Below, piece after piece: positions 32,026-32,772 of a stretch of 35,887 nt of DNA (positions are counted from its first letter, which is position 1; every line of letters begins with the position of its first letter). Position numbers and translations under genes: made by a program. A model generated the notes under the pieces. It made no database searches. It saw nothing but the letters and a program-made list of their open reading frames with translations, and was not told the origin of the DNA. Source of the DNA: Anaerolineales bacterium (lineage in GTDB: Bacteria > Chloroflexota > Anaerolineae > Anaerolineales > Villigracilaceae); assembly GCA_030824405.1 (NCBI GenBank), contig JAVBXV010000087.1:1-35887 (forward strand), given 5' to 3'.

Positions 32026-32054
32026 CACGCGCGGTATCTTTTCATCCGCGCGTG
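32026..32054 (+). terminator. Hairpin after 5S
   Basis: A perfect 9-bp GC-rich stem (32026-32034 and 32046-32054) with an 11-nt loop, but no U-tract follows. It may mark the 3' end of the rRNA transcript by processing, or slow transcription only partly. It overlaps the -35 region of the next promoter. Confidence 0.5.
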
Positions 32055-32067
32055 AATCGTGTATAAT
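32039..32067 (+). promoter_or_regulatory. Promoter of the rpsU-infA leader
   Basis: Perfect TATAAT (32062-32067) with a weak -35 TTTTCA (32039-32044) at 17-nt spacing. Predicted start near 32074. It would transcribe the structured leader and, by readthrough, rpsU-infA. Confidence 0.55.
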
Positions 32068-32085
32068 TCCAAAAGCAGTTTCGGC

Positions 32086-32108
32086 GTGGATAAGAATCAA
32101 TTATCCAC
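32086..32108 (+). other. Leader hairpin 1
   Basis: A perfect 8-bp stem, GTGGATAA (32086-32093) with TTATCCAC (32101-32108), 7-nt loop, near the 5' end of the predicted leader RNA. It could stabilise the transcript or bind a regulator. Confidence 0.6.
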
Positions 32109-32127
32109 TGTTCAAATTCGAGGAGTT

Positions 32128-32145
32128 ATGAAGCGTGTCTTTTGA
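32128..32145 (+). CDS. Putative five-residue leader peptide MKRVF
   Basis: ATG AAG CGT GTC TTT TGA, preceded by CGAGGAG (32119-32125), the best Shine-Dalgarno in the whole region. It lies between a promoter and a terminator in front of rpsU. Such a strong ribosome binding site in front of five codons is hard to explain unless ribosome binding itself is the signal. Bases 32119-32124 (CGAGGA) can pair with 32186-32191 (TCCTCG), which covers the 5' arm of the terminator. Translation is inferred, not shown. Confidence 0.45.
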   Translation: MKRVF

Positions 32146-32187
32146 TCATAGGATCATTTAGTTCGTTTCTGTTCTTTTGATGAAATC

Positions 32188-32224
32188 CTCGGCCGACTCT
32201 GAGTGCAGGCCGAGTTTTTATTTT
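32188..32224 (+). terminator. Intrinsic terminator/attenuator before rpsU
   Basis: CTCGGCC (32188-32194) pairs with GGCCGAG (32208-32214), 7 bp, 13-nt loop, followed by TTTTTATTTT. Only 24 bases separate it from the rpsU start, so any transcript of rpsU-infA must read through it. Confidence 0.85.
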
Positions 32225-32248
32225 CCATGTGAAAGGTGGTGAATTTAA

Positions 32249-32446
32249 TTGGCAGGAGTAAATTTACGCAATGGCGAGTCTCAAGACTCTTTGCTCAAGC
32301 GCTTTCGTAAAAAAGTCGTCAAGAGTGGTGTGTTGAGCACCGTCCGCCGCAAACGCTGGTTCGTTTCAAAGAGTGAAACGCGCCGCATGGAAAAGAAGAA
32401 AGCAATTCGTCGCATCAAAAGACGTTCCTTTAAGGACACTGAATAA
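32249..32446 (+). CDS. rpsU: Small ribosomal subunit protein bS21 (TTG start)
   Basis: A very basic 65-residue protein. The bS21 pattern is clear: [53 protein letters not shown]. In the ribosome bS21 sits at the 30S platform beside the 16S 3' end and helps start-site selection. The start is TTG at 32249; AAGGTGGTGA (about 32233-32242) lies at good spacing and no in-frame ATG exists near the N-terminus. infA follows 14 bases later. The gene lies downstream of the rRNA operon and its leader, behind a terminator, so its synthesis is probably set by attenuation. Confidence 0.93.
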
Positions 32447-32460
32447 TTCAAGAGGCGTGT

Positions 32461-32712
32461 ATGACTAAAGAAGAAGGCAAAATCAAGGTTGATGGTATTG
32501 TGATCGAGGCTCTGCCTGGAACTCAATTCCGTGTACGGCTCGATAATGGTCATGAAGTCCTGGCATATCTTGCGGGTAAAATGCGCAAGCATTATATTCG
32601 TATCTTGCTTGGTGACCGTGTTGCGCTTGAAATGTCTCCCTATGATATGGCGCGGGCACGAATTACTTTCCGCCAGCGCAAAATTGCCCCTGTCGTCACT
32701 ACCAAAGAATAA
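32461..32712 (+). CDS. infA: Translation initiation factor IF-1
   Basis: An 83-residue OB-fold protein that binds the A site of 30S during initiation. Recognised by [64 protein letters not shown], which follows the IF-1 consensus closely. It has a few extra residues at both ends compared with the 72 of E. coli. AAGAGGCGTGT precedes the ATG. It is co-transcribed with rpsU; both proteins act on the decoding platform of 30S. Confidence 0.95.
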
Positions 32713-32740: not shown

Positions 32741-32772
32741 AAAGAGGCTCTCATTTCTGAGAGCCTCTTTTT
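32741..32772. terminator. Bidirectional terminator between infA and the DHOD-like gene
   Basis: A perfect 13-bp stem (32741-32753 and 32758-32770) with a TTTC loop, T-run on the right and A-run on the left. It serves infA on the plus strand and the convergent gene on the minus strand. Confidence 0.93.

What the first reader, a model, noticed from the sequence alone, without database searches (positions are those of the whole stretch)
32039..32260. Possible ribosome-sensing attenuator in front of rpsU-infA, with a five-codon ORF
Seen: promoter (TATAAT 32062), an 8-bp hairpin, a very strong Shine-Dalgarno CGAGGAG directly before a five-codon ORF (MKRVF), then an intrinsic terminator 24 bases before the TTG start of bS21. 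CGAGGA (32119-32124) is complementary to TCCTCG (32186-32191), which includes the 5' arm of the terminator. So the Shine-Dalgarno can either be bound by 30S, leaving the terminator free to form, or pair with the terminator arm and disrupt it. Inference: when free 30S subunits are plentiful the leader is occupied and transcription stops. When they are scarce the terminator is blocked and bS21 and IF1, both factors of the 30S platform, are made. The location directly behind an rRNA operon makes this economically sensible. I know of no described leader of this form.
Basis: partly seen in the sequence, partly recalled or inferred. Interest (0 to 1): 0.75.

Follow-up and report, generated by a model that had tools for sequence, protein, structure and literature searches.

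The report
Conserved attenuator RNA before rpsU-infA
In a family of Chloroflexota bacteria, the genes for ribosomal protein bS21 and initiation factor IF1 are preceded by a conserved folded RNA that looks able to end transcription early or let it continue, and it carries a conserved ribosome-binding-like motif, so it may match bS21 supply to demand by a route not described before.

Summary
Window 32068-32219 is a conserved, structured, attenuator-type leader. Homologues sit just before rpsU-infA throughout one family of Anaerolineales; nothing like it is in Rfam. The main antiterminator is not the SD-terminator pairing. It is a long-range helix P1 (32076-78 and 32081-85 with 32192-96 and 32199-201), which covaries; in folding simulations, blocking its 5' strand is what frees the terminator.

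The SD-to-TCCTCG helix (P3) exists and matters in the window, where the two folds tie at -40.8 kcal/mol. In about half of the homologues it is weak or lost. The five-codon ORF is not conserved: 17 of 51 close homologues break it, and its start lies 2 nt from the SD. What persists is the SD-like element RAGGAG(U)GUG, with or without its pairing partner.

rpsU's own SD is also exceptionally strong (-22.2 kcal/mol in a congener, beyond 263 sampled ORFs), as in Bacteroidota, where bS21 is autoregulated through the anti-SD.

Best reading: a feedback attenuator sensing bS21 or 30S status, ligand unproven.

The parts
32039..32067 (+). promoter: TTTTCA, 17 nt, TATAAT; CGTGTATAAT is kept in most relatives
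32076..32085 (+). 5' strand of antiterminator helix P1 (CAG 32076-78, UCGGC 32081-85)
   Evidence: covariation; permutation test (z -8.2, 0 of 10000); masking it frees the terminator
32086..32108 (+). P2 hairpin, variable in sequence
32119..32125 (+). SD-like element CGAGGAG (family consensus RAGGAG, then U-GUG); pairs as P3 with 32186-32191 in this clade
32128..32145 (+). possible five-codon ORF MKRVF; not conserved, probably not functional
32130..32169 (+). P4 (GAAGCG 32130-35 / CGTTTC 32164-69) enclosing P5 (TGATC 32143-47 / GATCA 32152-56); nearly invariant sequence in the close group, candidate binding domain
32186..32191 (+). TCCTCG, partner of the SD-like element (P3)
32192..32201 (+). 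3' strand of P1 (GCCGA 32192-96, CUG 32199-201), overlapping terminator arm and loop
32188..32219 (+). intrinsic terminator CTCGGCC / GGCCGAG + T5, exclusive with P1 and P3
32232..32242 (+). extended SD of rpsU, AAAGGTGGTGA (-17.1 kcal/mol with the 16S tail)
32249..32446 (+). rpsU, ribosomal protein bS21
32461..32712 (+). infA, initiation factor IF1

Best explanation
The leader is a feedback transcription attenuator of rpsU-infA. As RNA polymerase leaves the promoter, the nascent RNA folds P2, P4/P5, P3 (where present) and then P1; P1 holds the 5' arm of the terminator, so the default is read-through. A product signal acts on the RAGGAG(U)GUG element and the P4/P5 domain enclosed by P1, breaks P1/P3 and lets the terminator form. 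The signal most likely reports bS21 status: either a 30S subunit whose 16S 3' tail pairs with the element, or free bS21 bound to the domain. When bS21 is short the signal is absent and rpsU-infA is transcribed. Supported by computation: the conserved structure, the exclusivity of P1 and terminator, the SD-like element, the linkage to rpsU-infA. Inferred: termination and read-through in the cell, the identity of the signal and its direction.
For: P1, P4 and P5 pair in 95.6% of cells, 9 of 19 pairs change on both sides, 0 of 500 shuffles reach it; terminator 87% paired with 30 two-sided cells. P1 strands fit their own partner better than swapped partners, z -8.2. Masking the 5' strand of P1 raises mean terminator probability 0.26 to 0.82. 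The nascent RNA up to 32203 takes the antiterminated fold. All R1 matches in the order lie upstream of rpsU, infA follows in 95 of 95 testable loci, one copy in the own genome. rpsU's own SD is exceptional, as in Bacteroidota where bS21 is autoregulated through the anti-SD (PMC9976891). A congener lost the leader as a unit but kept promoter and SD.
Against: No expression, binding or termination data. Free bS21 binding to a leader RNA is not known to me. Equilibrium folding does not show how occupancy of the SD-like element opens P1 in clades without P3. Shuffle and permutation tests do not fully correct for relatedness. No visible rRNA mimicry.
Confidence: 0.55

Rival explanations
1. Ribosome-sensing form: a 30S subunit docks on RAGGAG(U)GUG by SD/anti-SD pairing without starting translation; its presence breaks P3/P1 and causes termination. 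(A special case of the best explanation.)
For: The element persists where its internal partner P3 is lost; position -6 is A or G in 63 of 64, both of which can pair with U of the anti-SD; pairing with the 16S tail averages -12.4 against -8.0 kcal/mol for shuffles and is the best 18-mer of the leader in 84%; other families of the order have GGAG or GGAGG in unalignable leaders (9 of 10 against 4.2 expected); rpsU's own SD is exceptional.
Against: In the window pairing with the 16S tail is only -9.0 kcal/mol. Masking the SD shifts equilibrium folding only modestly family-wide. A protein contact would conserve the same letters, and nearly invariant P4/P5 is not explained by anti-SD pairing.
Confidence: 0.27
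2. Classical r-protein leader: free bS21 (or IF1) binds P4/P5 and the purine element and stabilises the terminator form, with no ribosome involved.
For: P4 and P5 are nearly invariant in sequence, including a G-U pair, as at a protein site; this is the common mechanism of r-leaders (PMC7247131).
Against: P4/P5 is not recognisable in distant genera of the family, while the SD-like element is. No similarity of the leader core to the rRNA operon above shuffles.
Confidence: 0.27
3. Translation-coupled leader-peptide attenuator: ribosomes translating MKRVF set the fold.
For: A five-codon ORF can be read in 34 of 51 close homologues.
Against: Broken in 17 of 51, not kept in distant leaders; start 0-2 nt from GGAG; letters explained by P4 and P5; no run of regulatory codons.
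Confidence: 0.03
4. No regulation: a terminator that merely insulates rpsU from the rRNA operon, plus a processed leader.
For: 57 of 92 leaders follow a 5S gene; one congener deleted the leader and kept promoter and rpsU SD.
Against: It has its own conserved promoter upstream of the terminator, a covarying alternative fold (P1) and conserved internal elements; 35 of 92 have no 5S end detected upstream.
Confidence: 0.12

Closest known systems
Ribosomal-protein leaders with conditional terminators (r-leaders, PMC7247131; L10, L20, S15, S6:S18 types from general knowledge)
   Same: structured, covarying 5' leader of an r-protein operon with alternative terminator and antiterminator
   Different: no Rfam match; bS21, rpsU and infA are not mentioned in the 20-leader survey PMC7247131; ligand unknown; carries an SD-like element away from the gene start
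bS21 autoregulation in Flavobacterium johnsoniae / Bacteroidota (PMC9976891)
   Same: rpsU with an exceptionally strong SD; a link between bS21, the 16S 3' tail and rpsU expression is proposed
   Different: there control is of translation by bS21-free ribosomes at the rpsU start; here a transcription-attenuator-type leader with a second SD-like site; many other genes here do use SDs
Leader-peptide attenuators (trp/his type, from general knowledge)
   Same: SD-like motif, possible short ORF, alternative hairpins, terminator
   Different: the ORF is not conserved and is badly spaced; no regulatory codons

Membership tests
Ribosomal-protein leader (r-leader) | conserved structured RNA in the 5' UTR of an r-protein operon, with covariation | tested here: met
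Ribosomal-protein leader (r-leader) | alternative fold that controls expression (terminator or SD occlusion) | tested here: met
   by sequence and folding only:
Ribosomal-protein leader (r-leader) | the operon's own protein binds the leader and represses | not testable with these tools
   needs binding and reporter assays
Ribosomal-protein leader (r-leader) | match to a described Rfam family | tested here: not met
   (not required for the kind, but excludes known families at that threshold)
Leader-peptide attenuator | conserved translatable short ORF | tested here: not met
bS21 anti-SD autoregulation (Bacteroidota type) | rpsU has an exceptional, extended SD | tested here: met
bS21 anti-SD autoregulation (Bacteroidota type) | bS21 sequesters the anti-SD, and SD use is otherwise rare | tested here: inconclusive
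   many other genes here do have SDs; no ribosome structure examined

The most novel reading that the evidence does not exclude
A transcription attenuator whose ligand is the small ribosomal subunit itself: free 30S with an available anti-SD docks on a non-coding SD in the leader and switches off the operon for bS21 and IF1, two factors of initiation competence, while bS21 shortage is also read by the extended SD of rpsU.
Probability: 0.27. Interest if true: 0.87.

Novelty: new member of a known kind. Interest (0 to 1): 0.6.

Why it matters
How bS21 is regulated outside Bacteroidota is open (PMC10931766 states that E. coli rpsU regulation is unknown). A covariance-supported attenuator-type leader of rpsU-infA in Chloroflexota, together with an exceptional rpsU SD, makes it testable whether a ribosome or a ribosomal protein is the sensed molecule. 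If the 30S itself is the ligand, this would be a regulatory RNA that measures the assembly state of the machine its product completes.

Tried and rejected
MAFFT alignment alone mis-registers the GGAG block, so P3 looked absent; replaced by per-sequence anchoring and a covariance-model alignment. The simple terminator scan missed the terminator because of its 13-nt loop. SD x TCCTCG as the family-wide switch: rejected, weak or lost in many clades. Mini-ORF: rejected. rRNA mimicry: leader core against the rRNA operon scores no better than shuffles. Gene context to separate bS21 from IF1: uninformative, infA always follows. The permutation test ignores relatedness: control pairings also gave z about -2.5, so P3 (z -3.8) is only modestly above background while P1 (z -8.2) is clear. 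Literature: no paper found on a Chloroflexota rpsU leader among those held; subscription papers are mostly not held.

Full report
Observation. The two genes are bS21 and IF1 by Pfam. The leader folds 2.4 sd below dinucleotide shuffles, and Rfam has nothing for it.

Conservation. bS21 homologues were collected from one GTDB family (150 genomes), from a genome collection (80 loci, all Anaerolineales or Chloroflexota by title), and from order, class and phylum. Nearly every rpsU of the family has such a leader. A covariance model, R1, built on 48 leaders finds the element in 42 of 301 genomes of the order, all in this family (8 genera); each listed match lies just upstream of an rpsU place found independently. 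The window's genome has one copy. More distant genera of the family keep the architecture but mostly score below R1's threshold (L093-L110, L118-L132). In other families of the order, 10 of 20 fetched rpsU upstream regions have a terminator-like hairpin before rpsU, and 9 of these 10 also carry GGAG against 4.2 expected from shuffles. They could not be aligned, so homology is open. The class and phylum loci fetched show no such leader on inspection.

Structure. The principal helix, P1, pairs the very start of the transcript (CAG..UCGGC) with the strand that also forms terminator arm and loop (GCCGA..CUG). On alignment A2 (66 sequences), P1, P4 and P5 pair in 95.6% of cells, nine pairs have two-sided changes, none of 500 shuffles reaches this, and sliding the partners drops pairing to 27-55%. 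A2 was fitted to this structure, which favours it; the anchored permutation test, which was not, gives z -8.2 for P1. The terminator pairs in 87% of cells with 30 two-sided cells. In distant genera P1 is rewritten (CACAG..CAGCC with GGCUG..CUGUG). In one sub-clade (L078, L079, L087, L088) the terminator has moved onto the CUCUGC segment, still exclusive with P1. P4 (GAAGCG/CGUUUC, with a conserved G-U) and P5 (UGAUC/GAUCA) are almost invariant in sequence in the close group, which suggests a specific binding site.

The SD-like element. GGAG preceded by RA and usually followed by U-GUG is the most deeply kept motif: position -6 is A or G in 63 of 64, -5 is A in 61 of 64, and GUG follows after one base in about 49 of 64. 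These sites were located by a GGAG pattern, so GGAG itself is 64 of 64 by construction; in the alignment, made without that pattern, only a few leaders lack it. Its pairing with the strand before the terminator (P3) is strong in the window's clade (CGAGGA/UCCUCG, -10.3 kcal/mol) and partly co-varies (GAGG/CCUC to AAGG/CCUU; CGAGG/CCUCG to UGAGG/CCUCA), but it is weaker than -4.5 kcal/mol in about half of 64 leaders and essentially absent in several. The element is therefore kept for something besides P3. It pairs with the 16S 3' tail of this organism (GGAUCACCUCCUUUCU) at -12.4 kcal/mol on average, against -8.0 for shuffles, and is the best such site of the leader in 84%; in the window the value is -9.0. 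Anti-SD pairing is one explanation and a protein contact another.

The mini-ORF. Of 51 leaders with P4/P5, 34 can encode a five-codon M/V/L-K-R-x-x peptide and 17 cannot: four have no start codon at the place with the stop spacing kept, four lack both, and nine have a shifted stop. The start sits 0-2 nt from GGAG, whereas rpsU in most relatives uses about 8 nt. Outside the P4/P5 type no such ORF is kept. The letters are accounted for by P4 and P5.

Switch. In equilibrium folding the antiterminated fold dominates in most homologues (median terminator probability 0.08). Masking the 5' strand of P1 raises the mean terminator probability from 0.26 to 0.82 in 67 leaders; masking the SD gives 0.35 and a 32-nt footprint also 0.35. 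In the window the two best folds tie at -40.8 kcal/mol, P3 contributes about 7.5 kcal/mol, and the transcript up to 32203 folds into the antiterminated form.

What senses what. In Flavobacterium, bS21-free ribosomes preferentially translate rpsU through its extended SD (PMC9976891). Here rpsU also stands out: in a complete congener its SD is -22.2 kcal/mol, while 263 ORFs of at least 200 codons sampled over 400 kb have mean -7.9 and minimum -18.5 even with the most favourable start chosen. ORFs of the ribosomal-protein gene cluster reach at most -14.6. In other families of the class rpsU averages -20.3, measured with a best-window choice. This makes a bS21- or 30S-linked signal the best guess, with direct r-protein binding to P4/P5 an equal rival to 30S docking. 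Equilibrium folding does not show how occupancy of the element would open P1 in clades without P3, and this is the weakest step.

Natural variants. One congener (L031, genome G044, 99% complete) has lost the leader cleanly, with the promoter now directly before the rpsU SD. Several congeners carry tandem rpsU copies, of which the first lacks the leader or its GGAG element. The leader is thus modular and dispensable, as a regulator can be.

Verdict. A real, apparently undescribed attenuator-type leader of rpsU-infA.

Noticed in passing
window 32232-32242; homologous positions in L015, L136-L159: rpsU's own SD is exceptionally extended (AAAGGAGGTGA) across Anaerolineae, stronger than 263 sampled ORFs of one genome and than the ribosomal-protein gene cluster; parallel to Bacteroidota.
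   Followed up: partly
L057, L060, L068, L069, L070, L080, L081, L084: Tandem rpsU copies in several congeners: the upstream copy, next to the 5S gene, lacks the leader; L070:648-783 keeps terminator arms but no GGAG element.
   Followed up: partly
L031 (genome G044), upstream of rpsU: Natural clean deletion of the whole leader; the conserved promoter now lies directly before the rpsU SD.
   Followed up: yes
L206, L207, L212, L217, L219, L221-L225: Other families of the order have a terminator-like hairpin upstream of rpsU, nine of ten with GGAG or GGAGG, but unalignable with the present leader.
   Followed up: partly
window 32743-32772: AGAGGCTCTC..GAGAGCCTCTTTTT, a probable terminator after infA.
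   Followed up: no
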